Positions 5,703 through 21,634 of a stretch of DNA of 64,000 nt are shown here, in pieces. Each line of letters begins with the position of its first letter. Positions within the stretch are counted from its first letter, which is position 1. A model generated the notes under the pieces. That model was not told the DNA's origin. It saw only the letters and a program-made list of their open reading frames with translations, and did no database searches. Source of the DNA: Streptomyces sp. NBC_00236. GTDB lineage: Bacteria > Actinomycetota > Actinomycetes > Streptomycetales > Streptomycetaceae. The stretch is from NCBI RefSeq assembly GCF_036195045.1, contig NZ_CP108100.1:1302001-1366000 (forward strand), in the 5' to 3' direction. A program made the translations under genes and the position numbers.

Positions 5703-5741
5703 GATAGTTCCACTATCGGATAGCAGGCAGTGCCACTATCC
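5703..5741. promoter_or_regulatory. Cluster of GATAG/CTATC half-sites, candidate MerR operator
   Basis: Alternating half-sites occur at 5703 (GATAG), 5713 (CTATC), 5719 (GATAG) and 5736 (CTATC). They form GATAGT-TCC-ACTATC and GGATAG-N12-CTATCC dyads in the 105-bp divergent intergenic region. The second dyad has MerR-like spacing and sits just upstream of the membrane-protein start at 5764. Confidence 0.6.
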
Positions 5742-5763: not shown

Positions 5764-6726
5764 ATGCAGCACTGGCGCACCTGGCACCGTCCATTAGTTC
5801 TCTTCGCCGCCGCCATGGCCGTGACGACCGTCGTCTCCGGCGTGGGCCTGCTGGTCGACGACCGCGTCCTGGCGGGCTCGGCGATCTGGTTCAAACCCTT
5901 CAAGTTCGCGGCCTCGTTCGTGATGTACGCCCTCGCTCTCGCCTGGATGCTGACGCTGCTCACCCGGGGCCGGCGCATCGGCTGGTGGGCCGGGACCGTG
6001 GTCGCGCTCGCCAGCTTCGTCGAGATGGTGATCATCGTCGGGCAGGTCGTCCGCGGGAAGCGCAGCCACTTCAACAACGCCACCCCGTTCGACGCTTCGC
6101 TGTTCGCCGTGATGGGCGCCACCATCGTCATCCTGTGGGCCGCCACGCTGGTCATCGCGATCCTGCTGCTGCGCGCCCGGATCGCGGACCGCGCCTCGGC
6201 CTGGGCCATCCGCTCGGGCGTCTTCCTGGCCCTGGCGGGCGCCGCCATCGGCTTCCTCATGACACAGCCCTCGGCGGAGCAGCGGGCGGCCGGAAACCTC
6301 GACACGGCCGATGTGGTGGGGGCGCACGCCGTGGGCGTACCGGACGGCGGGCCCTCGATGCCGCTGACCGGCTGGTCGACGACCGGCGGCGATCTGCGCA
6401 TCCCGCATTTCGTGGGGATGCACGCGCTCCAGCTCCTCCCCCTGTTCCTGCTGGTGCTGATCACTCTGGCGCCGCGCTTCGCCCGGTTGCGTGACCCGCG
6501 GGTCCGGCTGCGCCTGGTGCGGGTCGCCTCCGGCGCCTATGCCGCGGTCACCGCCCTGGTCGCCTGGCAGGCACTGCGCGGCCAGCCGCTGATTCACCCG
6601 GACGGTGCGACCCTCACCGCGGCCGCGCTCGTCCTGGCCGCCACCGCCGCCGGTACGTACGGCGCACTGCGGGTGCGCTCCGGAGCGCACCCCTCCCCCT
6701 CCGCCACGAAGGAGCTCACGTCATGA
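5764..6726 (+). CDS. Conserved multi-pass membrane protein of unknown function
   Basis: 320-residue integral membrane protein with about seven to eight hydrophobic segments. Visible motifs include IWFKPFKFAASFVMY near residues 40-55 and an HFVGMHALQLLPLFLL segment near residue 220. I do not recognise a characterised family. The ATG follows a GGGGG ribosome site. Its stop overlaps the start of the next gene (ATGA), so it is co-translated with the ABA4-like protein. Together they form a two-gene operon behind the putative MerR operator. Confidence 0.75.
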   Translation: MQHWRTWHRPLVLFAAAMAVTTVVSGVGLLVDDRVLAGSAIWFKPFKFAASFVMYALALAWMLTLLTRGRRIGWWAGTVVALASFVEMVIIVGQVVRGKRSHFNNATPFDASLFAVMGATIVILWAATLVIAILLLRARIADRASAWAIRSGVFLALAGAAIGFLMTQPSAEQRAAGNLDTADVVGAHAVGVPDGGPSMPLTGWSTTGGDLRIPHFVGMHALQLLPLFLLVLITLAPRFARLRDPRVRLRLVRVASGAYAAVTALVAWQALRGQPLIHPDGATLTAAALVLAATAAGTYGALRVRSGAHPSPSATKELTS

Positions 6727-8997: not shown

Positions 8998-9139
8998 GAC
9001 GGAGCTCTCCTGTGGTCGGCGGGGCACTGGTGTTCCCGATGGGCCGAGCCGGTCCGCGCGTGGAGTGCCGGGCTATCCTGGGTGTGCCGCACCTCGATCG
9101 CCTGGCGTGCCTTCACGGCTTGTCCGGTCCGGGGTTCGA

Positions 9140-9183
9140 GACCCCGGCAGGTGCTGCTCCAACAGTCCCTGCCGGGGTCTTTT
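9140..9183 (+). terminator. Intrinsic-terminator-like hairpin with tRNA T-arm-like sequence
   Basis: GACCCCGGCAGG and CCTGCCGGGGTC form a perfect 12-bp stem with a 16-base loop, followed by TTTT on the plus strand. Immediately upstream, CGGGGTTCGAGACCCCG looks like a tRNA T-arm. No complete tRNA or plus-strand gene precedes it, so what it terminates is unclear. The rest of 9000-9140 shows nothing I can name. Confidence 0.6.
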
Positions 9184-9188
9184 CCTCT

Positions 9189-9365
9189 AGGGCGTGTTTC
9201 GAAAGTCCCGCCTGCTCGGCGACGCCTGGCACGCACGCTCGCCGCGTTGTCGGGATCACCCCGATACAACCAGTATCGGGGCGACCCTCCGCCTTGCGAT
9301 CGCACGCACCAGACGCCGCCGAGCCCGCCCTCCGGGCGGACGGCGCTACTTCCGAAACACGCCCT
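9189..9365. mobile_element. MITE-like 177-bp palindromic element
   Basis: Terminal inverted repeats AGGGCGTGTTTCGAAAGT and ACTTCCGAAACACGCCCT (one mismatch) bound the element. Interior arms are also complementary (GCTCGGCGACGCCTGG against CCAGACGCCGCCGAGC), and the centre is CCCCGATA-N7-TATCGGGG. It can therefore fold almost end to end. It has no coding capacity and no clear target-site duplication. I recognise this sequence type as recurring in Streptomyces genomes. It sits between the ABC exporter and PadR genes. Confidence 0.8.
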
Positions 9366-9381
9366 TGGTCCGTCCCTCCCG

Positions 9382-10053
9382 TCACACCGTGCGTTCGGGG
9401 TCGAGGACGATGTCCTGCTCGTCCAGCTCCTGCCAGTCCTGAGGCACCTCGCCGGTCTCGTGGAACGACTTCCATTCCTCGATTCCACCGACGGTGGATT
9501 CGGCGACTTCCTTGCGGAAACCCTTGATCCACTCCAGTTGCGCCTCGATCATGTGGAGCTGGTATTCGGTCTCCACGACGAAGATCCGGGGCAGGACGTC
9601 ACTCAGCTGAGTGAGTACCCCCCGCAGCGCCGCGGCCCGGATGACCTGCGCCTGCTCCCGGTCCAGCAGCAGCTCCGCCACCTCGTCCGGCGGCAGCACC
9701 GGAAGCAGCGACAGGGCCGTGTCGAACACGGGGAACTCCGCCGCCGGTACAGCGATCAGGTCGGACAGCCAGTCCAGCATCTCGGCGCGCCCGGCCTCGG
9801 TGATGCCGTACAGCGTGCGCTCCGGGCGGTTGCCCTGCCGCTGCACGTCCGTGACCTCCACATAGCCGTGCTTCTCCAGGTTCTGGACCACGGTGTAGAG
9901 CGAGCCGAAGTTGATCTTGACACTGTGTTCCTTGCCGCGCCGACGCAGGGTCTGGGCGATCTCATAGGGATGCATGGACCGCTCGGCGAGCAGCACCATC
10001 ACCGTGAGCGCCAGCGGATTGCCGAGCTTGCGCCGCTTGGCCACCGCCCTCAC
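9382..10053 (-). CDS. PadR-family transcriptional regulator
   Basis: 223-residue PadR regulator. The winged helix spans about residues 10-95: LGNPLALTVMVLLAERSMHPYEIAQTL, FGSLYTVVQNLEKHGYVE, and the wing with ERTLYGITEAGR. A long C-terminal Vir_act_alpha_C dimerisation domain follows, with the EYQLHMIEAQLEWIKGF helix. The GTG at 10053 gives MRAVAKRRK; a second GTG at 10044 is equally possible. It lies upstream of, and on the same strand as, the DrrAB-like exporter, separated by the MITE. PadR proteins often repress such exporters, so this is the likely target. Direct repeats upstream may be its operator. Confidence 0.9.
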   Translation of the reverse strand: MRAVAKRRKLGNPLALTVMVLLAERSMHPYEIAQTLRRRGKEHSVKINFGSLYTVVQNLEKHGYVEVTDVQRQGNRPERTLYGITEAGRAEMLDWLSDLIAVPAAEFPVFDTALSLLPVLPPDEVAELLLDREQAQVIRAAALRGVLTQLSDVLPRIFVVETEYQLHMIEAQLEWIKGFRKEVAESTVGGIEEWKSFHETGEVPQDWQELDEQDIVLDPERTV

Positions 10054-10086
10054 CCCTCACCCGTTGTCGAATACTCGCCGACGAAC

Positions 10087-10128
10087 ATATCGCGAGCCCC
10101 GGGACTCGTCAACCACGATATATCGCGA
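10087..10128. promoter_or_regulatory. Direct repeats ATATCGCGA, candidate PadR operator
   Basis: ATATCGCGA occurs at 10087-10095 and 10120-10128. The second copy is embedded in the palindrome CGATATATCG. The pair lies immediately upstream of the PadR gene, in the region shared with the sigma-factor gene. Autoregulation is inferred. Confidence 0.45.
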
Positions 10129-10162
10129 ATCGGAAGATGCGTGGAAAGATCTGGCCCTCTGA

Positions 10163-10190
10163 CCAATCCGCGCTGCCACCGGCTCCGAAT
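10163..10190 (+). promoter_or_regulatory. ECF (SigK-type) promoter of the sigma factor gene
   Basis: CCAATCC at 10163-10169 and CCGAAT at 10185-10190 are separated by 15 bases. The same architecture occurs twice at 17448-17536. It resembles the CCATCC/CCGAAT-type promoter described for mycobacterial SigK. The transcript start would fall near 10197, about 35 bases upstream of the GTG start codon, implying positive autoregulation. Confidence 0.7.
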
Positions 10191-10230
10191 CACCCCACGA
10201 GACCGATGAGCATCCTGGGAGGACGCCCGC

Positions 10231-10815
10231 GTGAAAGAAGCCGTGCACATCAGCGGACTGGCCTCGGCGGGGCCTGATCTCCAGGAACTCCTGGGGAGAG
10301 TCGCCCGGGGGGATCAGGACGCCTTCTCCCAGGTGTACGAGGCGGTGTGCGGCCCCGTACTCGGTCTGGTACGCAGCGTGCTGCGTGATCCGGCCCAGTC
10401 CGAGGAGGTCGCGCAGGAGGTCCTGGTCGAGGTGTGGCGTACGGCGCCGCGCTTCCAGGCCGCCCGCGGGAGCGCCATGAACTGGGTGCTGACGATGGCC
10501 CATCACCGGGCGGTGGACCGGGTCCGTTCGGTGGAGGCCACGACGGCCCGTGAGCACAAGGCCGCGCTGCTCGACCGCACCCCCGCGTTCGACGACGTCA
10601 CCGAGCAGGTGGAGACCCGGCTGGAGCGGGAGCAGGTACGCCGCTGCATGCGGACGCTCTCCGAGCTGCAACGGGAGTCCGTGACCCTGGCGTACTACCG
10701 CGGCCTGACCTACCGCGAGGTGGCGGAGCTGCTCGCGGCCCCACTCGGAACGATCAAGACTCGACTGCGCGACGGGCTGATCCGGCTGCGCGACTGCCTC
10801 GGGGTGAGCGGATGA
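10231..10815 (+). CDS. ECF RNA polymerase sigma factor, SigK (ECF19) type
   Basis: 194-residue extracytoplasmic-function sigma factor. Region 2 spans about residues 35-110 (VRSVLRDPAQSEEVAQEVLVEVW and SAMNWVLTMAHHRAVDRVR). Region 4 spans about 130-190 (LSELQRESVTLAYYRGLTYREVAELL..PLGTIKTRLRDGL). The GTG has a GGGAGG ribosome site eight bases upstream. Its stop overlaps the anti-sigma start (ATGA), a tight sigma/anti-sigma pair. The neighbourhood (FAD amine oxidase, DUF1365, CFA synthases, DUF1295, fasciclin) matches the M. tuberculosis sigK locus and MPT70/83 targets. Note that the name SigK is used for an unrelated factor in S. coelicolor. Confidence 0.92.
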   Translation: MKEAVHISGLASAGPDLQELLGRVARGDQDAFSQVYEAVCGPVLGLVRSVLRDPAQSEEVAQEVLVEVWRTAPRFQAARGSAMNWVLTMAHHRAVDRVRSVEATTAREHKAALLDRTPAFDDVTEQVETRLEREQVRRCMRTLSELQRESVTLAYYRGLTYREVAELLAAPLGTIKTRLRDGLIRLRDCLGVSG

Positions 10816-11585
10816 GCGACGCCGGACTTCACACACTGACCGGGGCCTACGCCCTGCACGCTCTTCCGGAGCCCGAACGCCGGGAGTTCGAGAGGCATCT
10901 GGGCGACTGCGAGGCCTGCTCCGTCGAGGTGCACGAGCTCTCGGAGACCGCGACCCGGCTCGGGCTCGCCGTGTCCGCCGCGCCCCCGCGGGAGCTGCGC
11001 GAGCGGGTGCTCCGGGAAATCGCGACCGTACGCCAGGAGCCACCGTCCGGCGGCCGCCGGGCACGCAACGGGGCCACCGGCCGCAGTGGCGCGGGCCGGA
11101 CCCGGCGCTGGCCGGCGTTCGCGCTCGCCGCGAGCCTGGCCGCGGCGGCGGGCTTCGGCGGCGTGGCCGTCTGGCAGAACCAGGTGGCGCAGGACGCCCG
11201 GCAGGAGGCCCGCGCCGCGCAGGACGAGAACGCACAGCTCGTCCAGGTCCTCGCCGCACCCGACGCGCAGTCACGGTCCGGCACGCTGAAGGACGGCGCG
11301 ACGGGCACGGTGGTGGTCTCCGAGAGCCAGGACCGTGCCGTGTTCCTGGCCTCGGGACTGGCCGAGGCTCCAGGCGGCAAGGTCTACCAGCTGTGGTTCG
11401 ACGACGGCGGCACGATGCGCTCGGCGGGCCTGATGCGGGCGTCGGGAGACTCCCCCACGACGTACGCGACCCTGCTCGACGGGCCGGTGGACGGCGCCAC
11501 GGGCATGGGGGTCACCGTCGAACCCGCGGGCGGCTCGACGCAGCCGACGTCGGCCCCGCTGGCCCTGATGAGCCTGCCGGCCTGA
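10812..11585 (+). CDS. Anti-sigma factor RskA-like, zinc-finger type
   Basis: 257-residue membrane-anchored anti-sigma factor. The N-terminal anti-sigma domain has the H-x3-C-x2-C zinc motif (ERHLGDCEAC) near residues 30-40. A single membrane segment lies at about residues 95-120 (WPAFALAASLAAAAGFGGVAVW). The extracytoplasmic RskA domain ends with the MGVTVEPAGGS..P element common to this family. It should sequester the co-encoded sigma factor until regulated proteolysis releases it. It overlaps the sigma gene by four bases. Confidence 0.9.
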   Translation: MSDAGLHTLTGAYALHALPEPERREFERHLGDCEACSVEVHELSETATRLGLAVSAAPPRELRERVLREIATVRQEPPSGGRRARNGATGRSGAGRTRRWPAFALAASLAAAAGFGGVAVWQNQVAQDARQEARAAQDENAQLVQVLAAPDAQSRSGTLKDGATGTVVVSESQDRAVFLASGLAEAPGGKVYQLWFDDGGTMRSAGLMRASGDSPTTYATLLDGPVDGATGMGVTVEPAGGSTQPTSAPLALMSLPA

Positions 11586-11590
11586 GCGGA

Positions 11591-11619
11591 TGCCCGGCCT
11601 CCGGGGACGAGGCCGGGCA
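11591..11619 (+). terminator. Terminator after the anti-sigma gene
   Basis: TGCCCGGCCTC and GAGGCCGGGCA form a perfect 11-bp stem with a 7-base loop, starting five bases after the stop codon. There is no strong T-tract, as is common in Streptomyces. Confidence 0.7.
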
Positions 11620-11965
11620 GGGACTGCTCAGCGGAGCGCCAGGCGGAGCGGAGCAGTAAGTCGCTCGTCCTGGACCGGCACGGACTGCTCAGCGGCGCGG
11701 CGGGCAGGGCACGAAGCCACTCGTCCCTGGACCGGCACGAACTGCTCAGCCGCACGGCGGACGGCGCACGAAACCACTCGCCCCTGGACCGGCACGGACC
11801 GCTCAGCCGCACGGCGGACGGCGCACGAAGCCACTCACCCCTGGACCGGCACGAACTGCTCAGCCGCACGGCGGACGGCGCACGAAGCCACTCGCCCCTG
11901 GACCGGCACGGACTGCTCAGCGGCGCGGCGGGCGAGGCAGGAAGCCGCTCGTCCTGGACCGGTAG
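11620..11965. repeat. Tandem repeat, 57-bp unit, about six copies, ending inside the DUF1295 gene
   Basis: The unit core GGACCGG occurs at 11672, 11729, 11786, 11843 and 11900 with exact 57-bp spacing, then at 11956 (56 bp). A partial copy starts near 11620. Each unit carries GCTCAGC with the minus-strand stop TGA that ends the DUF1295 gene, so the array consists of copies of that gene's last ~13 codons plus stop. It fills the gap between two convergent genes. There is no spacer diversity and no cas gene. Confidence 0.88.
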
Positions 11966-12717
11966 GCGGCGAACCCGGGCCGCTCGGCCATGTGCCGTTC
12001 CAGGAGCGCCTTCCCGCTGCCGCCGATGAGCAGAAAGCTCATCAGGACGGGCGAGACCAGCGTGGCGGCGGCCGGACCGGGCGCCTGGCACACGATCAGG
12101 AACAGGCCCCACCACACGCAGAAGTCGCCGAAGTAGTTCGGGTGCCGGGTCCACGCCCACAGTCCCCGGTCCATGATCTTGCCGTGGTTGGCCGGGTCGG
12201 CCCTGAACCGGGCGAGCTGGTGGTCGCCGACACCCTCGAACAGCAGCCCGACGGCCCACAGTCCCGCCCCGGCCCAGCCCCATCCCGCGACCGGCCCCGT
12301 GAGGTATCCGGCCGCCTGCACCGGGAGCGAGATCACCCAGACCAGCGCGCCCTGGAGCAGGTAGACCTTCCGCAGGGCGTACAGATCCGGGTTGCCCGGC
12401 GCCTCGGCGAGCATCGACGCGTAGCGCGGATCCTCCCCGTGGCCCCGGCCACGGCGGGCGATGTGCACTGCCAGCCGCAGCCCCCAGACGGCCGTGAGCA
12501 CCGCGACCAGCAACCGGCGGCCGTCGTCGCCCTCACCCGCCGACAGGACGTACGAGACGAGGGCGACGATGGTGAAAGCAATCCCCCAGGCGATGTCGAC
12601 GACCCGGTGCACGCCCTTGTACAGGCCGACCGCGAAGGTGGCGAGCATGACGGCCAGTGCGGCACCGGCACACGGTGCGAGGCCCTGTGCGAACGCCGCC
12701 CAGGAGAAGCCGCTCAT
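11917..12717 (-). CDS. DUF1295 family membrane protein (steroid 5-alpha-reductase-like fold)
   Basis: 266-residue multi-pass membrane protein. The C-terminal ICMT/steroid-reductase-like motif WTRHPNYFGDFCVWWGLFL near residue 195 and the preceding NPDLYALRKVYLLQG are diagnostic of DUF1295. Family members are thought to be NAD(P)H-dependent reductases or modifiers of hydrophobic substrates; the substrate here is unknown. It is last in a five-gene minus-strand operon (FAD oxidoreductase, DUF1365, two CFA-type methyltransferases, this gene), and its start overlaps the upstream stop. Its final codons are tandemly duplicated downstream. Confidence 0.85.
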   Translation of the reverse strand: MSGFSWAAFAQGLAPCAGAALAVMLATFAVGLYKGVHRVVDIAWGIAFTIVALVSYVLSAGEGDDGRRLLVAVLTAVWGLRLAVHIARRGRGHGEDPRYASMLAEAPGNPDLYALRKVYLLQGALVWVISLPVQAAGYLTGPVAGWGWAGAGLWAVGLLFEGVGDHQLARFRADPANHGKIMDRGLWAWTRHPNYFGDFCVWWGLFLIVCQAPGPAAATLVSPVLMSFLLIGGSGKALLERHMAERPGFAAYRSRTSGFLPRPPRR

Positions 12718-14081
12718 CCGGTGGCTCCGGCCGTCTCCCCGTGACGGGCGGCAGGGACCTCGGCGGCGCCCGGGTACCAGCCGGCCCGGGTGACGGGCAT
12801 CCCGGCCGAGCCGGTCGCGTCCGGCCGCACGGCGAGGATCTGGTCCACGCCCATGCGCCGTTCCTCGAAGGCGAGGGAGCCGCCCGCCAGATACAGCCGC
12901 CACACCCGCACGGTCTCCTCGCCGACGAGCGCGGCGAACTCCGCCCAACGCTCCTCCAGGGTGCGCCGCCACGCGTCGACGGTGCGGACGTAGTGCTCGC
13001 GCAGCCCGTCCACGTCCCGCACTTCGAGCCCCGCCCCCTCCAGCAGCCCCACGGTCTCGCCGAGGGGCCGCATGTGCATGTCGGGCGCGATGTACGACTC
13101 GATGAACGCCCCGCCGCCCGGGGCCTGACGCCCCCGCGACATCTGCTGGACGAGCACCCGGCCCCGCGGCCGCACCATTCCGTGCAGCGTCCCGGCGAAG
13201 CCCGGGTACTGCGCGTCGCCGACGTGCTCGCCCATCTCGACGGTGGACACCGCGTCATAACCGGCCTCATGGCCGGGTGCGCGGCCGATGTCCCGGTAGT
13301 CGCAGCAGCGGACCTCGACCAGGTCCTCCAGGTGCTGTTCGGCCACCCGCTGCCGGACGTACGCCGCCTGCTCCCGGGCCAGGGTGACGGCGGTGACGCG
13401 GACGCCGTGCCGGCGCGCGGCGTACAGCGTCAGAGACCCCCAGCCGCAGCCGATGTCCAGCAGCCGCGCGCCCGGGCGCAGGTCCAGCTTGCGGCAGATC
13501 AGCTCCAGTTTGTCGCGCTGGGCGTCGGCGGGACCGTAACCAGGTGCGTCGCTCGTCCAGTAGCCGCACGAGTAGGCCATGGTCTCGTCGAGGAGCAGCG
13601 CGTAGAACGCGTTGGAAAGGTCGTAGTGGTGGCTGATGGCGGCCCGGTCGCGGGCCTTGCTGTGCAGGACGCCGTGGAGTCCTGCCCGGGCGGCGGGGAC
13701 CGGTGGCCTGGGGCCGACGGCTCCCAGGCGCAGTGCGGTGCCGACGGCCCGCAGCCGTTCGCCGGCCCCGGGGCGCGGCGGGCGCAGGCCGCGCTCGCGC
13801 ACCGCGTGGCGCATCGCCCGCAGCCCGTCGGCGAGGTCCCCCTCGATGTCGATGTCCCCGGTGATGTACGCCTCGGCGAGACCGAGTTCGCCCGGTGCCC
13901 AGAGCAGCCGGCGCAGCGCCCGGCGGGAGCGGACGTGGACCAGGGGGCCGTCGGCGGCCCCCGTCTCGCTGCCGTCCCACATCCGTACCCTGACCGGGAG
14001 TTCGCCGCCGAGCAGGTGCTCGGCGAGGGGTTCGAGCCGCTGGGCGGCGCCGGTGGCCGCCCGCTTGCCGGTGAGTGTCAT
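12714..14081 (-). CDS. Cyclopropane-fatty-acyl-phospholipid synthase-like methyltransferase (first of two)
   Basis: 455-residue SAM-dependent methyltransferase of the CFA synthase/UfaA1 family. The N-terminal lipid-binding region has YITGDIDIEGDL, and ISHHYDLSNAFYALLLDE precedes the SAM-binding motif LLDIGCGWGSLTLYAA. It transfers a methyl or methylene group to an unsaturated acyl chain in membrane phospholipid. The start overlaps the stop of the paralogous upstream gene (ATGA). Two paralogues in one operon suggest distinct steps or positions of methylation rather than redundancy. Confidence 0.9.
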   Translation of the reverse strand: MTLTGKRAATGAAQRLEPLAEHLLGGELPVRVRMWDGSETGAADGPLVHVRSRRALRRLLWAPGELGLAEAYITGDIDIEGDLADGLRAMRHAVRERGLRPPRPGAGERLRAVGTALRLGAVGPRPPVPAARAGLHGVLHSKARDRAAISHHYDLSNAFYALLLDETMAYSCGYWTSDAPGYGPADAQRDKLELICRKLDLRPGARLLDIGCGWGSLTLYAARRHGVRVTAVTLAREQAAYVRQRVAEQHLEDLVEVRCCDYRDIGRAPGHEAGYDAVSTVEMGEHVGDAQYPGFAGTLHGMVRPRGRVLVQQMSRGRQAPGGGAFIESYIAPDMHMRPLGETVGLLEGAGLEVRDVDGLREHYVRTVDAWRRTLEERWAEFAALVGEETVRVWRLYLAGGSLAFEERRMGVDQILAVRPDATGSAGMPVTRAGWYPGAAEVPAARHGETAGATG

Positions 14082-15382
14082 CGCGCCGTTTCCTGACGGG
14101 TCAGCAGCATCTGCTGCACATGGAGGTAACCGGAACGGAATCCCGCTTCGGAGTAGGCCAGATAGAAGGTCCACATGCGACGGAAGGTGGCGTCGAAGCC
14201 GAGGGCGTCGACATCGGCGGCCCGTTCGGTGAACCGTTCACGCCACAGGCGCAGGGTCTCGGCGTAGTGCGTGCCGAAGTCGTCGCAGCGCTCGACGCGC
14301 AGGGCGGTGTGTGCGGCCGTGACCTCGCCGATGGCCTCGACGGAGGGGAGGAGTCCACCGGGGAAGATGTACTTCTGGATCCAGGTGTAGGTGTTGCGGC
14401 CGGCCCGCATCCGGTCGTCGGGCATGGTGATGGCCTGGAGGGCGATCCGTCCACCGGGGGCCAGGCGCCGGTCCAGTGTGCGGAAGTAGACGGGCCAGAA
14501 GTCCGCGCCGACCGCCTCGATCATCTCGACGCTGACGACGGCGTCGTACACCCCGTCGACGTCCCGGTAGTCGCAGAGCCGGACGTCGACACGGTCCTCG
14601 AATCCGGCGTCCCTGATCCGGCGGCGCGCCAGATCCCGCTGCTCCCGGGAGAGCGTGACGGAGACGACGCGGGCGCCCCGGGCCGCGGCACGGATGGCCA
14701 GTTCGCCCCATCCGGTGCCGATCTCCAGGAGTTCGGTGCCGGGGCCGACCGCGGCCAGGTCGAGCAGCCGGTCGATCTTGCGGTGCTGGGCGGCGGGCAG
14801 CAGAGCGGGCTCGGCGGGGAAGCCGCGGAAGAGGGCGGCGGAGTAGCTGAGCGTTTCGTCGAGGAAGAGCGCGAAGAGTTCGTTGGACAGGTCGTAGTGG
14901 TGGCTGATGTTGTCGCGGGCGCCTTCCTGCGTGCCGAGCTGCCCGGCGGGGCGGCGGCGGGCCCAGAGTCCGCGCAGCCGCTGGAGGGGCGGCGGGATCA
15001 GGGTGGCGACCTGGTCGGCGAGGACGGTCAGGACGCCCACCGGGTCGGGCGTGTCCCACTCGCCCGCCATGTACGACTCCCCGAAGCCGATCAGGCCGTC
15101 GGCCCCGATGCGGCGGAAGAACGTGGCGGGGTCCGTCACGTCCATCAGCGGGCCGCCGAGACCGAGTTCCTCGCGTCCCGCGAGGCGGACCCGCAGTGGG
15201 AGGCGGGCCAGGGCGCGGCGGACGAGCCGTTCGGCGACGGCGGTCCGCAGCCGGGAGGCACGGGTCGGCCGCACGACGTCGGGCCAGCGGCCGGGATCGA
15301 CGTCGGCGGTGGTGTCGACGGAAGCCGGGGCCGAGGGGGAGGACGGGGACGGGGAGTGGGTTGTGGTGGTGGACACGCTCAC
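14078..15382 (-). CDS. Cyclopropane-fatty-acyl-phospholipid synthase-like methyltransferase (second of two)
   Basis: 434-residue CFA/UfaA1-family methyltransferase. Motifs include GFGESYMAGEWDTPDP in the lipid-binding half, ISHHYDLSNELFALFLDETL, and a SAM site LLEIGTGWGELAIRAA, whose Thr replaces the Cys found in its neighbour. The GTG start follows GGAAGGA. The DUF1365 stop overlaps this start region. The N-terminal ~25 residues are Ser/Thr/Pro-rich and probably disordered. It should act on unsaturated membrane lipids in the operon controlled by the ECF promoter at 17448-17475. Confidence 0.9.
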   Translation of the reverse strand: MSVSTTTTHSPSPSSPSAPASVDTTADVDPGRWPDVVRPTRASRLRTAVAERLVRRALARLPLRVRLAGREELGLGGPLMDVTDPATFFRRIGADGLIGFGESYMAGEWDTPDPVGVLTVLADQVATLIPPPLQRLRGLWARRRPAGQLGTQEGARDNISHHYDLSNELFALFLDETLSYSAALFRGFPAEPALLPAAQHRKIDRLLDLAAVGPGTELLEIGTGWGELAIRAAARGARVVSVTLSREQRDLARRRIRDAGFEDRVDVRLCDYRDVDGVYDAVVSVEMIEAVGADFWPVYFRTLDRRLAPGGRIALQAITMPDDRMRAGRNTYTWIQKYIFPGGLLPSVEAIGEVTAAHTALRVERCDDFGTHYAETLRLWRERFTERAADVDALGFDATFRRMWTFYLAYSEAGFRSGYLHVQQMLLTRQETAR

Positions 15383-16101
15383 TGCATTCCTTCCTGGGTG
15401 CGGTGGTGGGGGCGGGGCTGTACGGGCAGTCCGCGGAGCAGGAGGCGGATGCCGTGCAGCCGGATGGCGGCCGACACGACGGCCGTGGACCAGGGGTGGC
15501 GGACGGCGAGGCGGAGCAGCTCGGCCGGGCCGGCGGGCCTCCGTACGCCCCGGACGGTGGCGGTGAAGGGCCGGGTGCCGGCCCGTTCCAGCTGGACCGT
15601 CAGGGTGAGCCGGGGGCCGGGTTCGGGCAGTCTCATCCGGTAGTCGCCGTCGGTGCCGAAGAACGGCGACACGTAGAACTCCTTGCCGGTGTCCGCCTGT
15701 CCGGAGCCGTCCGGACGCAACAGATAGCAGTGGCGTTCGCCGTACGTGTTGTGGACCTCGGCGACCGTGCAGAGCGGGGTGCCGTCGGCGCGGCGGCACC
15801 AGTAGACGGTCAGCGGGTTGAAGACGTGGCCCAGCACCCGGGCCTGAGTGAGCATCCGCACGGATCCGTCGGCGATGTCGATGCCGTGGGCGGCCAGGTA
15901 GCGGTCGAGGCCGGCCCTGATGGTCGGGGCCGTACCGCCGAAGTGGTCGCGCGGGTCGAAGCCCGCCAGCGGGCGCAGGGCGCGGGGCAGCCGCGGCGGC
16001 TCGTCCGGGTCGATCAGCCACAGGTAGGTGCGGTGCCGGAGGGCGTACCTGGTGGGCGCCGTCCGTACGTGCGTGATCGTGCAGGGGTAGAGGGCGTTCA
16101 C
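15379..16101 (-). CDS. DUF1365 domain-containing protein
   Basis: 240-residue protein with the DUF1365 features: ALYPCTITHVRTAPTRYALRHRTYLWLID at the N-terminus, HVFNPLTVYWCRRADG in the middle, and EVHNTYGERHCYLL. No biochemical function is established. It is almost always adjacent to an FAD amine-oxidase-like gene and CFA synthase, which implies a role in modified fatty acid synthesis or trafficking. GTG start; its GTGA overlaps the stop of the upstream oxidoreductase. Confidence 0.88.
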   Translation of the reverse strand: MNALYPCTITHVRTAPTRYALRHRTYLWLIDPDEPPRLPRALRPLAGFDPRDHFGGTAPTIRAGLDRYLAAHGIDIADGSVRMLTQARVLGHVFNPLTVYWCRRADGTPLCTVAEVHNTYGERHCYLLRPDGSGQADTGKEFYVSPFFGTDGDYRMRLPEPGPRLTLTVQLERAGTRPFTATVRGVRRPAGPAELLRLAVRHPWSTAVVSAAIRLHGIRLLLRGLPVQPRPHHRTQEGMQ

Positions 16102-17372
16102 CAGTCCACCCCCAGTGCGGCGGCCGCCTCGGCCCCCGAGCGGCAGCCGTCCTCGTGGAAGCCCCAGCCGTGATACGCCCCCGCGTAGGCGGTGACGGGG
16201 CCGGAGAGGGCGGGCAGCCGGGCCTGCGCGGCGACCGATTCGGGGGTGTAGACGGGGTGCTCGTACTCCATGCGGGCGCGGACCAGGCCGGGGGCGACGC
16301 GGTCGGCCCCGTTCAGGGTGACGACGAAGGTCTCGGGTGCGTCGAGGCGTTGGAGCCGGTTCATGTCGTAGCTGACGGTGACGTGCGCGGCGTCGGCGGA
16401 GCAGGACGGCATCAGGTAGTTCCAGGAGGCACGGGCACCGCGGGCGGCGGGCAGCAGCCGGGTGTCGGTGTGCAGCAGGGTGGGATTGCGGGAGTAGCGG
16501 AAGGCGCCCAGGGTGCGGGTCTCCTCGTCGGTCGGGTCGGCGAGGATGCGCAGTGCCTGGTCGGGGTGGGTGGCGATGACGACGGAGTCGAACGGCTCGG
16601 TGGTGTCGTCGGCGGTGACGAGGTCGACGCCGTCCGTGTGACGGCGCACGGTACGGACCGGGGTCGAGGTGCGGACGGCGCCGAGTTGCTTGGTGACCCG
16701 GTCGACGTAGGCCGCCGATCCGCCGGTGACGGTCCGCCACGCCGGGGAGCCGCCGATGGTGAGCATCCCGTGGTGGTCGAGGAAGCGGAAGAGGTAACGG
16801 GCGGGGTAGCGCATCGCGGTCACCGGGTCGCAGGACCAGACCGCGGAGACCACGGGGGTCAGGAAGTGGGCGGTGAAGTACGGGGAGAACCGGCCGCGTG
16901 CCGCGAAGTCGCCGAGCGTCATCGTGTCCGCGTCCGGGCCGCCGTCCGCCAGCAGGCGCCGGGCGGCCCGGTGGAAGCGGGGCACGGCGGCCAGCATCCG
17001 CAGATAGGCGGGGTCGCGGACCGTTGCCGGCCGGGCGAGGAGACCGGCCGGACCACGGGCACCCGCGTACTCCAGGCCGCATCCCTCGCACCGTACGGAC
17101 ATGCTCATCTCCGACTCCTGTGTCGGGACGGCGAGTTCCGCGAAGAGCCGCAGCAGATGCGGATAGGTGCGCCGGTTGTGCACGATGAAGCCGGAGTCCA
17201 CGCGGTGGACCCGGCCGTCGGACGCGGGCAGGTCGTGGGTGTGCGCGTGACCCCCCACCCGGTCGTCCGCCTCGAACAACGTCACGTCGTGCGCCCTGCG
17301 CAGGATGTGGGCGGCGGTCAGTCCCGCCACCCCGCTCCCCACGACGGCTGTGCGTCGCCGCCTGTCTGTCAT
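16098..17372 (-). CDS. FAD-dependent amine oxidase/desaturase-like oxidoreductase
   Basis: Roughly 424-residue NAD(P)-binding Rossmann flavoprotein. The N-terminal dinucleotide motif is VVGSGVAGLTAAHIL, followed by FEADDRVGGHAHTH. The C-terminal FAD contact is AYAGAYHGWGFHEDG. SVRCEGCGLEYAG carries a CxxC. It belongs with the FAD oxidoreductases of SigK and ChrR-RpoE regulons. A Rhodobacter homologue has been implicated in desaturation during furan fatty acid synthesis (recalled, unverified). The ATG at 17372 lies five bases after GAGGAGG and is preferred over the adjoining GTG. First gene of a five-gene overlapping operon. Confidence 0.88.
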   Translation of the reverse strand: MTDRRRRTAVVGSGVAGLTAAHILRRAHDVTLFEADDRVGGHAHTHDLPASDGRVHRVDSGFIVHNRRTYPHLLRLFAELAVPTQESEMSMSVRCEGCGLEYAGARGPAGLLARPATVRDPAYLRMLAAVPRFHRAARRLLADGGPDADTMTLGDFAARGRFSPYFTAHFLTPVVSAVWSCDPVTAMRYPARYLFRFLDHHGMLTIGGSPAWRTVTGGSAAYVDRVTKQLGAVRTSTPVRTVRRHTDGVDLVTADDTTEPFDSVVIATHPDQALRILADPTDEETRTLGAFRYSRNPTLLHTDTRLLPAARGARASWNYLMPSCSADAAHVTVSYDMNRLQRLDAPETFVVTLNGADRVAPGLVRARMEYEHPVYTPESVAAQARLPALSGPVTAYAGAYHGWGFHEDGCRSGAEAAAALGVDW

Positions 17373-17447
17373 CACGCCCTCCTCGGCTCACCGGCGCAGG
17401 CCGCTCCTCGTACCGTCACGAAGGAGCGGCGATGCCTTTCGGCTGTG

Positions 17448-17475
17448 GTTCGTCACCGGTCGCGCCGCGGATTGG
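17448..17475 (-). promoter_or_regulatory. ECF (SigK-type) promoter of the lipid-modification operon
   Basis: On the minus strand, CCAATCC (17475-17469) and ACGAAC (17453-17448) are separated by 15 bases, the same spacing as at the sigma-factor gene. The predicted start near 17440 leaves a leader of about 65 bases before the oxidoreductase ATG. Confidence 0.65.
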
Positions 17476-17508
17476 CGCGGGCCGATTCTCATTCGGTCGA
17501 GTGACAGA

Positions 17509-17536
17509 CCAATCCGCCCGGCTTCGGGGAACGAAT
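17509..17536 (+). promoter_or_regulatory. ECF (SigK-type) promoter of the Moco oxidoreductase gene
   Basis: CCAATCC at 17509-17515 and ACGAAT at 17531-17536 are separated by 15 bases. The predicted transcript start falls at about 17543-17544, exactly at the GTG proposed as start codon, which would make the transcript leaderless. Confidence 0.65.
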
Positions 17537-17543
17537 GCCGGTT

Positions 17544-19172
17544 GTGAGTGAAGATCAGAACGACATGCGGAACGGGGCCCAGTGGTCCCGGCGGTCCCGC
17601 TGGGCACGTGCGGCCTTCGCCGCGCTCAGCGGTGTGATCGCCGGGTTCTGTGCCCTGGCCGTCGCCGAGCTCGTCGCGGCGGTCGTACGTCCCGAGGCGG
17701 GTCCGGTCGCGGCGGTGGGCGGTGCGGTGATCGACCGCACTCCCCCGGCGCTCAAGGACTTCGCCGTACGGAACTTCGGCACGAACGACAAGCTGGTGCT
17801 CCAACTCGGCATCCTGGCCCTGCTGGCGGTCTTCGCCATGGCGGTCGGGGTGCTGGCGCTGCACCGCCGGCTGCTCGGCTCGGCGGCCGTCCTGGTCTTC
17901 GGGGTGGTCGGGGCGGTCGCGGCGGTCGGCCGGCCCGAGGGCCGGGTGTCCGACGCGCTGCCCTCGGTGGTGGGTGCCGTGGTGGCCGCGGGAGTCCTCT
18001 ATCTCCTGGCCGGACGGCTGGCCCCGGTCCCGGGCCCCTCCCCCGCGGCTGGCGGGAGGGACGCGGAGCCGGACCACGGCACCTTCGACCGGCGGCGCTT
18101 CGTCATCGCGGCGAGCGCCGCGGCGGCGGCCTCGGCGGGCGCCGGACTGCTGGGACGGCGGCTCACCTCGGCCGTGCAGGCCGGGGCCGCCGCCTCACGG
18201 CGGGACCTGGTCCTGCCCGTGCCCGCCTCGGCGGCGCCCGCCGTACCCGCGGGGGCCGATCTGGGGATCCGCGGGCTGAGCTCGTTCGTCACCCCGAACA
18301 AGAGCTTCTACCGGGTGGACACGGCACTGGTCGTGCCGCGCGTCGATGCCGGCGAGTGGCGGCTGAGGATCCACGGCAAGGGCGTGAAGAGGCCCTTGAC
18401 GCTCAGCTTCCAGGACCTGCTGCGCCGGGAGATCATCGAGCGCGACATCACCCTGGCCTGTGTCTCCAACGAGGTGGGCGGACCGTACGTCGGGAACGCC
18501 CGGTGGATCGGCGTGCGGCTGGCCGGTCTGCTGCGGGAGGCCGGGGTGAAACCCCCGTCCCGGGGCGGAGCCGCCGACCAGATCGTGGCGCGTTCGGTGG
18601 ACGGCATGACGATCGGCACTCCGGTCGAGGACGTCATGGACGGCCGCGACGCGATGCTCGCCCTCGGCATGAACGGTGAGCCGCTGCCCTTCGAGCACGG
18701 CTTCCCGGTCCGGATGGTCGTCCCCGGCCTGTACGGATACGTGTCGGCCTGCAAGTGGCTGAAGGACATCGAGCTCACCACGTTCGACGACTACGACGCC
18801 TACTGGGTCAAGCGGTCCTGGTCCCGGCAGGCGCCCATCAAGACGGAGTCCCGCATCGACACCCCCCGCCCCTTCGCCTCCCCGAAGACCGGCACCGTCC
18901 CGGTCGCCGGGGTCGCCTGGGCCCAGCACCGCGGTATCCAGCGGGTCGAGGTCCGGGTCGACGGCGGACCGTGGAACACCGCACGGCTGGCTGCCGAGGA
19001 CAGCCGGGACACCTGGCGCCAGTGGGTGTGGGAATGGCCGGCCACCTCCGGCAGTCACACCCTGGAGGTCCGCGCGACGGACCGCACCGGCGCCACCCAG
19101 ACCGAGGAACGCGTCGGCACCGTACCCAACGGTGCTACCGGCTGGCACTCCGTGGTGGTCGACGTGTCCTGA
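17544..19172 (+). CDS. Membrane-anchored molybdopterin-dependent oxidoreductase (sulfite oxidase family)
   Basis: About 542 residues. The N-terminal ~165 contain four hydrophobic segments. Then comes a twin-arginine-like element, DRRRFVIAASAAAAASAG, and a catalytic Oxidored_molyb domain with the Mo-ligand Cys in ITLACVSNEVGG (about Cys306). A C-terminal Mo-co dimerisation domain of Ig-like fold follows (EVRVDGGPWNTARL). It is probably anchored with its active site outside the membrane. I choose GTG 17544 because the ATG at 17535 lies inside the promoter -10; ATG 17565 is another option. The electron acceptor and substrate are unknown. The fasciclin lipoprotein gene follows 117 bases later. 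Confidence 0.88.
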   Translation: MSEDQNDMRNGAQWSRRSRWARAAFAALSGVIAGFCALAVAELVAAVVRPEAGPVAAVGGAVIDRTPPALKDFAVRNFGTNDKLVLQLGILALLAVFAMAVGVLALHRRLLGSAAVLVFGVVGAVAAVGRPEGRVSDALPSVVGAVVAAGVLYLLAGRLAPVPGPSPAAGGRDAEPDHGTFDRRRFVIAASAAAAASAGAGLLGRRLTSAVQAGAAASRRDLVLPVPASAAPAVPAGADLGIRGLSSFVTPNKSFYRVDTALVVPRVDAGEWRLRIHGKGVKRPLTLSFQDLLRREIIERDITLACVSNEVGGPYVGNARWIGVRLAGLLREAGVKPPSRGGAADQIVARSVDGMTIGTPVEDVMDGRDAMLALGMNGEPLPFEHGFPVRMVVPGLYGYVSACKWLKDIELTTFDDYDAYWVKRSWSRQAPIKTESRIDTPRPFASPKTGTVPVAGVAWAQHRGIQRVEVRVDGGPWNTARLAAEDSRDTWRQWVWEWPATSGSHTLEVRATDRTGATQTEERVGTVPNGATGWHSVVVDVS

Positions 19173-19251
19173 ACGGGCGTTCCCAGCGCGTTCACGCCAC
19201 CCCGGGCTTACCTCACACGCCCCTCCACACACCCCATACCGATCACCGAAC

Positions 19252-19267
19252 GTGACAGAACAGTCAC
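19252..19267. promoter_or_regulatory. Inverted repeat GTGAC-N6-GTCAC upstream of the fasciclin gene
   Basis: GTGACAGAACAGTCAC lies 23 bases before the fasciclin start. It could be a regulator site or a small mRNA hairpin. Its spacing differs from the Crp form by two bases. No SigK-type promoter is visible here, so the gene may be read through from the Moco gene. Confidence 0.3.
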
Positions 19268-19289
19268 ACATCCACATCAGGAGAACATC

Positions 19290-19943
19290 ATGAAGGTCAT
19301 CCACGCCCGTCGCGCCGCCGTCGCACTCTCCGCCGCGATCGTCCTGCCACTGGCCCTGACGGCCTGCTCCAGCGACTCCGACGACAGCAGCGCGTCCGGC
19401 TCCTCGGCGAGCTCGGCGAAGGCCTCGGACAAGGCATCGGAGCCCGCCGGCGACACGACGCCCATGAACGAGCCCTTCGGTCCGGCCTGTTCGACGGTGC
19501 CGAAGGACGGCGCCGGCTCCTTCGACGGCATGGCGAAGGACCCGGTCGCCACGGCCGCCTCGAACAACCCGGCGCTCTCCACCCTCGTCACCGCGGTGAA
19601 GAAGGCCGGCCTGGTCGACACCCTGAACAACGCGGAGAACATCACGGTGTTCGCCCCGACCAACGACGCGTTCGCCAAGGTCCCGAAGGCCGACCTGGAC
19701 AAGCTGCTCGCCGACAAGGCCGCGCTCACCAAGGTCCTCACCTACCACGTGGTGGGCCAGAAGCTGACGCCGAAGCAGCTGGAGAAGGGATCCTTCGACA
19801 CGCTGGAGAAGAGCGAGCTGACGACGTCCGGTTCGGACATGGCGTACACCGTGAACGACTCCTCGAAGGTCGTCTGCGGCAACGTCCAGACGGCCAACGC
19901 GACGGTCTACATCGTCGACACGGTCCTGATGCCGGCCAAGTAG
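19290..19943 (+). CDS. Fasciclin-domain lipoprotein (MPT70/MPT83-like)
   Basis: 217-residue secreted lipoprotein. The signal peptide has lipobox LTAC with acylated Cys26, then a Ser-rich linker. A FAS1 domain covers about residues 80-215: ITVFAPTNDAFAKVP is the H1 motif, YHVVGQKLTP lies near the H2 region, and ATVYIVDTVLMP is the C-terminal strand. M. tuberculosis homologues MPT70 and MPT83 are the main SigK targets, which supports the assignment of the adjacent ECF factor. Likely surface adhesion or stress-related function. AGGAG site before ATG. Confidence 0.92.
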   Translation: MKVIHARRAAVALSAAIVLPLALTACSSDSDDSSASGSSASSAKASDKASEPAGDTTPMNEPFGPACSTVPKDGAGSFDGMAKDPVATAASNNPALSTLVTAVKKAGLVDTLNNAENITVFAPTNDAFAKVPKADLDKLLADKAALTKVLTYHVVGQKLTPKQLEKGSFDTLEKSELTTSGSDMAYTVNDSSKVVCGNVQTANATVYIVDTVLMPAK

Positions 19944-19948
19944 CGGCC

Positions 19949-19962
19949 CTCCCGCGCGGGAG
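19949..19962 (+). terminator. Short GC palindrome after the fasciclin gene
   Basis: CTCCCGCGCGGGAG is a perfect 14-bp palindrome six bases after the stop codon. It is a weak terminator candidate without a T-tract. Confidence 0.4.
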
Positions 19963-20059
19963 CCACCGCCACCGCCCTCGGCAACCCGCCGCAGGACGTG
20001 AGCACTTCGGCCCCGCGCGGACACGGCCTCGTCACGCCCCGGAAACAGCGCGTCCCTAA

Positions 20060-20080
20060 TTTCTGTCGCCCGACAGGAAA
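20060..20080. promoter_or_regulatory. TetR-type operator upstream of the APC permease
   Basis: TTTCTGTCGCCCGACAGGAAA is a near-perfect palindrome whose core CTGTCGCCCGACAG differs by one central base from the site at 24090-24109. The flanking CCCTAA is also shared. It lies 19 bases before the permease start, well placed for repression. Confidence 0.75.
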
Positions 20081-20098
20081 TCGGCGACAGGGGCTGAC

Positions 20099-21634
20099 AT
20101 GACCGCCACCGCACCAACGGACGTACGACCGGATCCCGCCGGAACCGGCCAGGGCGACCACGCCTCCCTGGCCGGTTTCGGCTACCGCCAGGAACTGCAC
20201 CGGTCCATGGGCCGGTACGCCTCGTTCGCGGCCGGCTTCTCCTTCATCTCCGTCCTGACCACCGTCTTCCAGTTCTTCGCGTTCGGCTTCTCCTTCGGCG
20301 GCGCCGCCTTCTTCTGGACCTGGCCGGCCGTGCTCGTCGGCCAGTTGCTGGTCGCCGCCTGCTTCGCCGAACTCGCCGCCCGCTACCCGCTGTCCGGCGC
20401 CATCTACCAGTGGTCGACCCGGCTCAGCACTCCCGCGTTCGGCTGGTACGCCGGGTGGATCATGGTGATCGGGCAGATCGTCGTGGTCGCCGCCGCGGCG
20501 CTGGCCCTCCAGGTGGTCCTGCCGGCCATCTGGTCCGGTTTCCAGCTGGTGGGCGGTGACCCGGCGCCCACCACGGCGACGGGCGCGGCCAACGCCGCGC
20601 TGCTGGCCGTGGCGCTCCTGGCCCTCACGACGACGGTGAACCTGCTCGACAACAAGGTCATGTCGGCGGTCAACCGCATCGGGGTGACGGCCGAGATCAT
20701 CGGCGCGGTGCTCATCCTGGTCCTCCTGTTCACCCACACCGAGCGCACCCCCGGCGTCACCCTGCACACGGGCGGCCAGGGCGGCGCCCTCGGGGCGCTG
20801 CTCGTCGGTTCGTTCACCGCGGCCTACGTCCTGATCGGCTTCGACAGCGCCGGCGAGATGAGCGAGGAGACCCGCTCCCCGCGCCGCACCGCCCCGCGCA
20901 CGATCCTGCTCGCGCTGGCCTCGGCGGGGGTGCTCGGCGGGCTGCTGGTCCTCGCGGGCATCCTGGCCGCACCGGACCTGACCAACGGCCGGCTGGCCAC
21001 GGAAGGCCTGTCGTACGTGCTGACCAGCAGCCTCGGGGACGGCGTGGGCCGGGTGCTGCTCGCCGATGTGGCGGTCGCCGTCGCGGTGGCCACGCTCGCC
21101 ATCCAGACGGCCGGTTCACGGATGCTGTTCTCGATGGCGCGCGACGGGGTGCTGCCCTGCTCGTCCCGGCTCGCCAAGGTCTCCCCGCGCACCGGGATGC
21201 CCGCCGCACCCGCCCTGTTCGTCGGCGCGGCGGCCGCGGCGCTCGGACTGCTGAACCTGGCCTCACCGGAGGCGTTCCTGGCGATCGGCACCACGTGCAT
21301 CGCGATGCTGTACCTGGCGTACGCGATGGTCACGGGCCCGATGCTGCTGCGCAGGCTGCGCCGCCTCCCGCTCTCCCCCGCCACCGGCCCGGTCCACGAC
21401 GAGGAAGGCAGGCCCCTCTTCTCGCTGGGCCGTTGGGGACTCCCGGTCAACGCGCTGGCCTTCGCGTACGGAGCGGTGATGACGGTCAACCTGGCCTGGC
21501 CGCGGGCTGCGGTGTACGACCCGGCGGGCGGGCACTGGTACTTCCAGTGGTTCACGGTGCTCTTCCTGGCCGTCACCATGCTGCTCGGCGCGGCTTATCG
21601 CGTGTACGCCAAGCGGTCGCCCTCCGTACGCTGA
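20099..21634 (+). CDS. APC-superfamily amino acid/amine permease
   Basis: 511-residue transporter with about 12 membrane segments. The first carries the APC-type sequence ASFAAGFSFISVLTTVFQFFA, and LAARYPLSGAIYQWSTRL is typical of the amino-acid permease family (UGA4/GABA-type branch). It should import an amine or amino acid by a cation-coupled mechanism. The operator it shares with the carboxylase operon suggests its substrate feeds that pathway, possibly guanidine, a guanidino compound or arginine derivative. The next gene starts four bases after its stop. Confidence 0.9.
   Translation: MTATAPTDVRPDPAGTGQGDHASLAGFGYRQELHRSMGRYASFAAGFSFISVLTTVFQFFAFGFSFGGAAFFWTWPAVLVGQLLVAACFAELAARYPLSGAIYQWSTRLSTPAFGWYAGWIMVIGQIVVVAAAALALQVVLPAIWSGFQLVGGDPAPTTATGAANAALLAVALLALTTTVNLLDNKVMSAVNRIGVTAEIIGAVLILVLLFTHTERTPGVTLHTGGQGGALGALLVGSFTAAYVLIGFDSAGEMSEETRSPRRTAPRTILLALASAGVLGGLLVLAGILAAPDLTNGRLATEGLSYVLTSSLGDGVGRVLLADVAVAVAVATLAIQTAGSRMLFSMARDGVLPCSSRLAKVSPRTGMPAAPALFVGAAAAALGLLNLASPEAFLAIGTTCIAMLYLAYAMVTGPMLLRRLRRLPLSPATGPVHDEEGRPLFSLGRWGLPVNALAFAYGAVMTVNLAWPRAAVYDPAGGHWYFQWFTVLFLAVTMLLGAAYRVYAKRSPSVR

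What the first reader, a model, noticed from the sequence alone, without database searches (positions are those of the whole stretch)
10163..19943. Self-contained ECF sigma regulon defined by a repeated promoter, controlling membrane-lipid modification
Three sites with the form CCAATCC-N15-(A/C)CGAA(T/C) occur at exactly three places: before the sigma gene (10163), and facing both ways in the 170-bp gap between the amine oxidase operon and the Moco gene (17448-17475 minus, 17509-17536 plus). Spacing is identical in all three. Every gene from 10231 to 19943 thus falls behind one of them. The gene set (sigma, anti-sigma, FAD oxidase, DUF1365, two CFA methyltransferases, DUF1295, Moco enzyme, fasciclin) combines the mycobacterial sigK locus with genes that ChrR-RpoE controls in proteobacteria, where singlet oxygen triggers methylated or furan fatty acid synthesis (recalled). 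I infer a stress-induced programme that rewrites membrane lipids and adds a surface redox/adhesion pair.
Basis: partly seen in the sequence, partly recalled or inferred. Interest (0 to 1): 0.85.

Follow-up and report, generated by a model that had tools for sequence, protein, structure and literature searches.

The report
Streptomyces SigK lipid-modification regulon
A Streptomyces stress switch of the SigK type appears to turn on, through three matching promoters, genes that resemble the bacterial machinery for light-protective furan fatty acids, which suggests a testable job for a regulator whose trigger is unknown.

Summary
The three sites exist as described and are the only exact matches in the 8.33-Mb genome. 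A matrix from related loci scores them 27-35 bits; the window's next best site scores 5.6. In 80 related loci the site stands before the same three gene starts and almost never before internal genes; one -10 base changes together in a locus's promoters. The regulator pair is SigK-RskA.

The lipid operon resembles the furan-fatty-acid enzymes UfaD-UfaO-UfaM, which ChrR-RpoE controls in Rhodobacter's singlet-oxygen response. A Mesorhizobium plasmid has nearly the same gene set, with fasciclin, a Moco enzyme and photolyase, around ChrR. In 27 of 80 SigK loci a photolyase follows rskA; six adjoin LitR-LitS.

Best reading: a SigK regulon making furan, or related methylated, membrane lipids against photo-oxidative stress. 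The regulon is well supported by comparison; product and signal are inferred. 'Self-contained' holds for exact sites in this genome, not for the genus. New variant of a known kind.

The parts
10163..10190 (+). SigK-type promoter before sigK
   Evidence: exact match; 35.0 bits; site before sigK in 76 of 80 relatives counting the CGGA form
10231..10815 (+). sigK, ECF sigma factor
   Evidence: NF007228 SigK 289.2 bits, cut-off 226; M. tuberculosis SigK 4nqw E 6.7e-47, C139 and C189 align with C133 and C183
10812..11585 (+). rskA, membrane anti-sigma
   Evidence: RskA_C 111.2 bits, RskA_N 29.1; NF052375 223.6, cut-off 100; weak match to the solved RskA piece, E 0.14
11669..11962 (.). 57-bp tandem repeat, 5.2 copies, where many relatives carry a photolyase gene
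   Evidence: photolyase behind rskA in 27 of 80 relatives
11917..12717 (-). DUF1295 membrane protein (steroid-reductase-like), last gene of the lipid operon
   Evidence: PF06966 229 bits (scanned with a longer frame 11917-12972)
12714..14081 (-). cfa2, CFA-type SAM methyltransferase; possible FufM-like step (inferred)
   Evidence: CMAS 242.6 bits (scanned as 12714-14174)
14078..15382 (-). cfa1, CFA-type SAM methyltransferase; UfaM-like by place and similarity
   Evidence: CMAS 284 bits; 41% to the CFA protein of the ChrR locus L173
15379..16101 (-). DUF1365 protein, UfaO-like
   Evidence: PF07103 224 bits; 32-39% to DUF1365 proteins of four ChrR loci; UfaO is a DUF1365 protein
16098..17375 (-). 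FAD oxidoreductase (amine-oxidase family), UfaD-like, first gene of the lipid operon
   Evidence: PF01593 93.9 bits; 37-44% to FAD proteins of four ChrR loci
17448..17475 (-). SigK-type promoter of the lipid operon
   Evidence: exact match; 27.3 bits; 46 of 46 relatives counting the CGGA form
17509..17536 (+). SigK-type promoter of Moco-fasciclin
   Evidence: exact match; 29.9 bits; 35 of 41 relatives counting the CGGA form
17544..19172 (+). sulfite-oxidase-superfamily Moco enzyme with N-terminal hydrophobic segments (by eye)
   Evidence: PF00174 147.8 bits; sulfite:cytochrome c oxidoreductase 2blf E 2.1e-27
19290..19943 (+). fasciclin protein with an apparent lipobox (LTAC)
   Evidence: PF02469 116.5 bits; MPT70 1nyo E 7.5e-33

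Best explanation
This is a SigK-RskA regulon in one piece. RskA holds SigK at the membrane. A signal, most likely light-driven singlet oxygen or the lipid peroxides it makes, leads to loss of RskA. SigK then transcribes three units from CCAATCC-N15-(A/C)CGAA(T/C) promoters: sigK-rskA (feedback), the five-gene lipid operon, and Moco-fasciclin. The lipid operon works like the Rhodobacter furan-fatty-acid pathway: a CFA-type enzyme methylates an unsaturated phospholipid chain (UfaM step), the FAD enzyme desaturates it (UfaD step), the DUF1365 protein inserts O2 to form a furan ring (UfaO step); the second CFA enzyme may add a second methyl (FufM step). The furan lipid would scavenge singlet oxygen. 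The Moco enzyme and the fasciclin lipoprotein act outside the membrane, perhaps on oxidised surface proteins. Supported by comparison: promoters, units, protein families. Inferred: signal, product, order of steps, role of DUF1295 and of Moco-fasciclin.
For: Only three exact sites in the genome, all here. Site before sigK 76/80, FAD 46/46, Moco 35/41, against rskA 0/77, DUF1365 0/45, cfa1 1/47, cfa2 1/49, DUF1295 0/52. The -10 base agrees between sigK and FAD promoters in 46/46 loci and sigK and Moco promoters in 33/34. SigK and RskA family scores. Same enzyme types as UfaD-UfaO-UfaM; FAD-DUF1365-CFA together in 17 of 17 non-Streptomyces actinobacterial regions long enough to tell. R. sphaeroides RpoE regulon has the same types plus fasciclin and photolyase. 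ChrR pair near these genes in 7 of 9 proteobacterial plasmid loci opened; L173 has nearly the whole set. Photolyase behind rskA in 27/80 loci; LitR-LitS beside sigK in 6/80. Homologues of SigK targets are light-induced in M. kansasii.
Against: No expression or lipid data from Streptomyces. Identities to the proteobacterial proteins are only 32-44%, and the tested Rhodobacter proteins themselves were not compared. 13 or 14 of 17 actinobacterial triads show no SigK gene or site. The -10 change is about two events on the tree. The window lacks the photolyase. M. kansasii induction was small and dipZ was not induced. In mycobacteria no condition but macrophage contact activated mpt70p. UfaA1 in crude extract was reported to make a 10-methyl acid. 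RskA has no ChrR-type cupin domain. Streptomyces membranes are mostly saturated branched chains (recalled), so the substrate is uncertain.
Confidence: 0.6

Rival explanations
1. Same SigK regulon, but the lipid operon makes 10-methyl (tuberculostearic-type), cyclopropane or other methylated acids, with no furan ring.
For: Two CFA-type enzymes. M. tuberculosis UfaA1 in crude extract was reported to give 10-methyl stearate (passage in PMC5660069), and ufaA1 is said to be under sigK (passage in PMC6540422).
Against: The 10-methyl route shown in PMC5660069 needs the BfaA FAD-binding oxidoreductase with BfaB; the window FAD protein is of the amine-oxidase family (that BfaA is of another FAD family is recalled). 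The DUF1365 gene is the part that marks the furan route and sits with FAD and CFA in 17 of 17 regions.
Confidence: 0.25
2. Same SigK regulon, but the signal is a sulfur, chlorine or envelope oxidant rather than light or singlet oxygen; the Moco enzyme (sulfite oxidation or methionine sulfoxide repair) is the main output.
For: The Moco enzyme is nearest to sulfite dehydrogenases. ECF26 sigma factors control sulfite oxidases in response to sulfite (PMC6527743, passages). In L173 the Moco gene is msrP.
Against: Promoter of ECF26 (GGAAT/CGTC) differs; the lipid and photolyase genes point to photo-oxidation.
Confidence: 0.2
3. The shared site is read by another sigma or regulator, not by SigK.
For: In other genomes 75 of 150 listed sites lie far from a SigK-family gene, and some sites stand before an anti-sigma gene next to a sigma about 30% identical.
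Against: 75 of 150 lie within 13 kb of one, against about 0.3% expected by position. The -10 base changes with the sigma clade. PMC7509140 states that SigK sites are highly conserved in Actinobacteria and that SigK orthologues read the mpt70 site.
Confidence: 0.05

Closest known systems
SigK-RskA regulon of mycobacteria (ECF18/ECF19)
   Same: SigK-subfamily sigma with both redox cysteines, RskA-type anti-sigma, CFA gene under sigK, fasciclin targets (MPT70/MPT83 type), conserved promoter
   Different: Here sigK has its own site; the three units lie in one block; a Moco gene precedes fasciclin (dipZ stands between the fasciclin genes in mycobacteria); two CFA genes
ChrR-RpoE (ECF11) singlet-oxygen regulon of proteobacteria
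   Same: Targets of the same types: FAD protein, DUF1365, CFA, fasciclin, photolyase in relatives, in L173 also Moco and DUF1295
   Different: Anti-sigma is RskA-type, not the ChrR cupin type; sigma 30-38% identical; different promoter
Furan-fatty-acid pathway UfaM-UfaD-UfaO-FufM
   Same: Same enzyme types in one operon
   Different: Product not tested; similarity measured only to proteins of neighbouring ChrR loci, not to the tested enzymes
LitR-LitS light switch of Streptomyces
   Same: Next to sigK in 6 of 80 related loci
   Different: Not next to sigK in the window; LitS is a different sigma, about 30% identical
S. coelicolor 'SigK' (SCO6520)
   Same: Name only
   Different: A SigB-type sigma (PMC9205884, passages)

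Membership tests
SigK-RskA system | Sigma above the SigK subfamily cut-off | tested here: met
   289.2 against 226 bits
SigK-RskA system | Adjacent anti-sigma with RskA domains | tested here: met
   RskA_C 111.2 against 29.4; RskA_N 29.1 against 27
SigK-RskA system | Two redox cysteines of SigK | tested here: met
   C139 and C189 align with C133 and C183
SigK-RskA system | Fasciclin (MPT83/MPT70-type) target | tested here: met
   MPT70 E 7.5e-33; downstream of a site through Moco
SigK-RskA system | Transcription depends on SigK | not testable with these tools
   needs RNA work
ECF11 (RpoE-ChrR) | ChrR anti-sigma with cupin domain | tested here: not met
   RskA domains only; ChrR of L171 and L173 shows PF12973
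Furan-fatty-acid pathway | DUF1365 (UfaO), FAD desaturase (UfaD) and CFA-type methylase (UfaM) together | tested here: met
   UfaD's FAD family inferred from gene order in L171
Furan-fatty-acid pathway | Furan acyl chain made | not testable with these tools
   needs GC-MS
Sulfite dehydrogenase SorA/SorT/SoxC | Score above the curated cut-off | tested here: not met
   127 against 600, 88 against 570, 117 against 420

The most novel reading that the evidence does not exclude
The unknown job of SigK-RskA systems across Actinobacteria, those that control the MPT70/MPT83 antigens included, is a photo-oxidative (singlet oxygen) membrane response that makes furan fatty acids: an independent takeover of the effector set that ChrR-RpoE runs in proteobacteria, with oxidation of the furan lipid itself feeding back on RskA.
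Probability: 0.4. Interest if true: 0.82.

Novelty: new variant of a known kind. Interest (0 to 1): 0.62.

Why it matters
Veyrier et al. 2020 say that the signal for SigK is still unknown. If the SigK operon is the furan-fatty-acid pathway, both signal and product become directly testable in harmless Streptomyces, with light plus a photosensitiser and fatty acid GC-MS. It would also show that two unlike anti-sigma types, ChrR and RskA, were each coupled to the same lipid-protection genes; a Caballeronia plasmid with an RskA-type pair beside a proteobacterial-type cassette points the same way.

Tried and rejected
(1) Further SigK targets in this genome: 16 one-mismatch sites, none convincing. 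The variant CCMATCC-N16-CGGAT has one match, at window 5694-5721; the frame behind it (5764-6726) has no Pfam match.

(2) I first took the six LitR-LitS loci to have lost the SigK site before the FAD gene: 0 of 6 against 39 of 40 elsewhere (sites, loci, Fisher test). The alignment showed a changed -10 (CGGA for CGAA) at the same place, and a count with that form removes the difference. Claim withdrawn.

(3) Sigma residues that go with the -10 change (positions 46, 54, 83 and others): about two changes on the tree, so none can be singled out.

(4) A fasciclin promoter of its own in the window: none.

(5) LitR-LitS beside the unlinked photolyase of this genome: none found in the 19.5 kb read.

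(6) Rfam in 9000-21000: no match at gathering score. PADLOC on the sigma: none.

(7) Print search for SigK with furan fatty acids: searches showed 25 of 18,004, 20 of 302 and 10 of 82 papers, none joining the two; not exhaustive. Lemke 2020 has no 'Mycobacterium' or 'Streptomyces' in its main text. Veyrier 2008 is not held; Dufour 2008 and Lemke 2014 were seen only as references, so an earlier remark there cannot be excluded.

Full report
What is there. The window lies in a Streptomyces-type genome (one contig, 8.33 Mb; 78 of the 80 named relatives are called Streptomyces). From 10163 to 19943 it holds three units: sigK-rskA (+), a five-gene lipid operon (-), and Moco-fasciclin (+). The five lipid genes overlap head to tail by 4 bases each, as do sigK and rskA, so each set is very likely one message. 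Families: SigK-subfamily sigma, RskA-type anti-sigma, FAD oxidoreductase of the amine-oxidase family, DUF1365, two CFA-type methyltransferases, DUF1295, a sulfite-oxidase-superfamily Moco enzyme, and fasciclin.

The promoters are specific. The exact pattern occurs three times in the window and three times in the genome, none for the reversed pattern. A matrix from 127 sites in related loci gives 35.0, 29.9 and 27.3 bits; the fourth best site in 64 kb has 5.6. Of 101 genomes of the genus, 71 carry the exact pattern; the reversed control has three places, in three genomes. 77 of 101 carry a SigK-family gene at E 1e-45.

The sites follow gene starts. Five of the nine fasciclin sites have the N15 spacing; in four of these no Moco gene was called in the locus. 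A second count with spacer fixed at N15 and the -10 form CGGA added gives sigK 76 of 80, FAD 46 of 46 and Moco 35 of 41. The base agrees between the sigK and FAD promoters in 46 of 46 loci (39 A, 7 G) and between sigK and Moco in 33 of 34. That is what one co-evolving sigma would give, but it rests on about two changes on the sigma tree. The lipid operon is not always near sigK: the FAD gene was usable in 46 of 80 loci, and L068, L081 and L085 have Moco-fasciclin straight after sigK-rskA, still with a site.

Start of the Moco gene. ATG 17535 lies inside the -10 box; GTG 17544 follows it by seven bases. Measured to this start, 22 of 31 sites in relatives lie 34-39 bases upstream; others range more widely.

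Not self-contained in the genus. Of 150 listed exact sites in the 101 genomes (the list was cut), 75 lie within 13 kb of a SigK-family gene, about 0.3% expected by position, and 75 do not. Among 30 sites turned into loci, the gene behind was a zinc-finger anti-sigma in 11 and DUF4331 in 8, by similarity to one another (Pfam on one of each). Of 20 wider regions, six have DUF4331 back to back with a SigK and/or RskA paralogue (sigma 58-65% identical in the five where it was called), six have the anti-sigma gene near a sigma 30-32% identical, L155 and L158 have an unlinked Moco-fasciclin pair behind the site, and L159 an unlinked Moco gene. In the window's genome the sigma has no close paralogue (next 31-34%).

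What the lipid operon most likely makes. Lemke et al. 2020 (PMC7380195; abstract, sections 8 and 9, and passages) show that UfaM, UfaD and UfaO turn an 18:1 phospholipid chain into a furan fatty acid, that UfaO carries DUF1365 and uses O2, and that FufM adds a second methyl. The R. sphaeroides RpoE regulon table (PMC7074977, passages) lists rpoE, chrR, the CFA gene, photolyase, RSP_1091, RSP_1090 and fasciclin RSP_1409. Donohue 2019 (PMC6852236, passages) puts furan-fatty-acid genes in the conserved ECF11 core. I opened 12 of 52 plasmid records with a DUF1365 match (40 listed): nine proteobacterial, three actinobacterial. A ChrR-sigma pair stands near the FAD and DUF1365 genes in seven of nine (L171, L172, L173, L177, L179, L180, L182; as annotated, Pfam-checked in L171 and L173); L181 (Caballeronia) has an RskA-type pair, and L178 (Salinivibrio) has neither but has photolyase. 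L173 carries FAD-DUF1365-CFA, fasciclin, MsrP-MsrQ, photolyase and DUF1295-CFA around ChrR. Window proteins are 37-44% (FAD), 32-39% (DUF1365), 41% (cfa1 to L173), 33-37% (DUF1295) and 36-39% (fasciclin) identical to these; Moco only 26% to MsrP. In L171 the order sigma-ChrR, FAD, DUF1365, MFS repeats that of R. sphaeroides RSP_1093-1089, which is why I equate the FAD protein with UfaD; this is inference.

Actinobacterial breadth. On the three actinobacterial plasmids a SigK-like site stands before the operon with the FAD gene (3 of 3; in Rhodococcus the first gene is an alpha/beta hydrolase), and sigK-rskA lie beside it in two. In a phylum draw 23 of 198 genomes have the FAD protein at E 1e-50, five of them Streptomyces. 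Of the other 18, all fetched, one is cut short; in 17 of 17 FAD, DUF1365 and CFA lie together. A SigK gene or a site close to FAD is seen in 3 (L183, L184, L185, all of the window's class), doubtfully in one more (L189), and not in 13. So the triad is wider than its link to SigK.

Light. A photolyase follows rskA by 14-117 bases in 27 of 80 loci and sigK directly in L094; 36 of 80 hold one (Pfam on two). Six of 80 have LitR (MerR with B12-binding domain; Pfam on L116) and LitS next to sigK; LitR-LitS is a blue-green light switch (PMC12705666, passages). In M. kansasii homologues of the SigK targets mpt83 and mpt70 are light-induced, weakly, and dipZ between them is not (PMC9861118, passages). 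Against this, Veyrier et al. found no condition but macrophage contact that activates mpt70p. The window lacks the photolyase; a 57-bp tandem repeat lies there. The one PF00875 match of the genome lies elsewhere.

Relation to known systems. By the features tested this is a SigK-RskA system, though the match to the solved RskA piece is weak (E 0.14). PMC7509140 (introduction, sections 8, 11, 13 and passages read) reports conserved SigK sites in Actinobacteria and an unknown signal. It is not an ECF11 system, because the anti-sigma is not ChrR, but its target set works like one.

Verdict. The regulon reading is well supported by comparison alone. The furan-fatty-acid and photo-oxidative reading is the best fit but unproven; its value is a concrete, cheap test of what SigK-RskA is for.

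Noticed in passing
window 11669-11962: 57-bp tandem repeat (5.2 copies, 89% matches) behind rskA, running into the 3' end of the DUF1295 gene, at the place where many relatives carry a photolyase.
   Followed up: partly
L142, L144, L147, L148, L149, L152: In other Streptomyces a SigK-type site stands before a zinc-finger anti-sigma gene that neighbours a different ECF sigma (30-32% identical): possible link by which one sigma system silences another.
   Followed up: partly
L141, L143, L145, L146, L150, L151: A second SigK/RskA-type pair stands back to back with a DUF4331 gene that has the same type of site.
   Followed up: partly
L094: rskA was not detected and a photolyase begins about 40 bases after sigK: a possible natural loss of the anti-sigma.
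   Followed up: no
L181: A betaproteobacterial plasmid (Caballeronia) has an RskA-type anti-sigma and sigma beside FAD-DUF1365-CFA and DUF1295-CFA genes.
   Followed up: partly
window 9382-10150: A PadR-type regulator gene is read away from sigK; the gap before the SigK site holds ATATCGCGA repeats that look like an operator (by eye).
   Followed up: no
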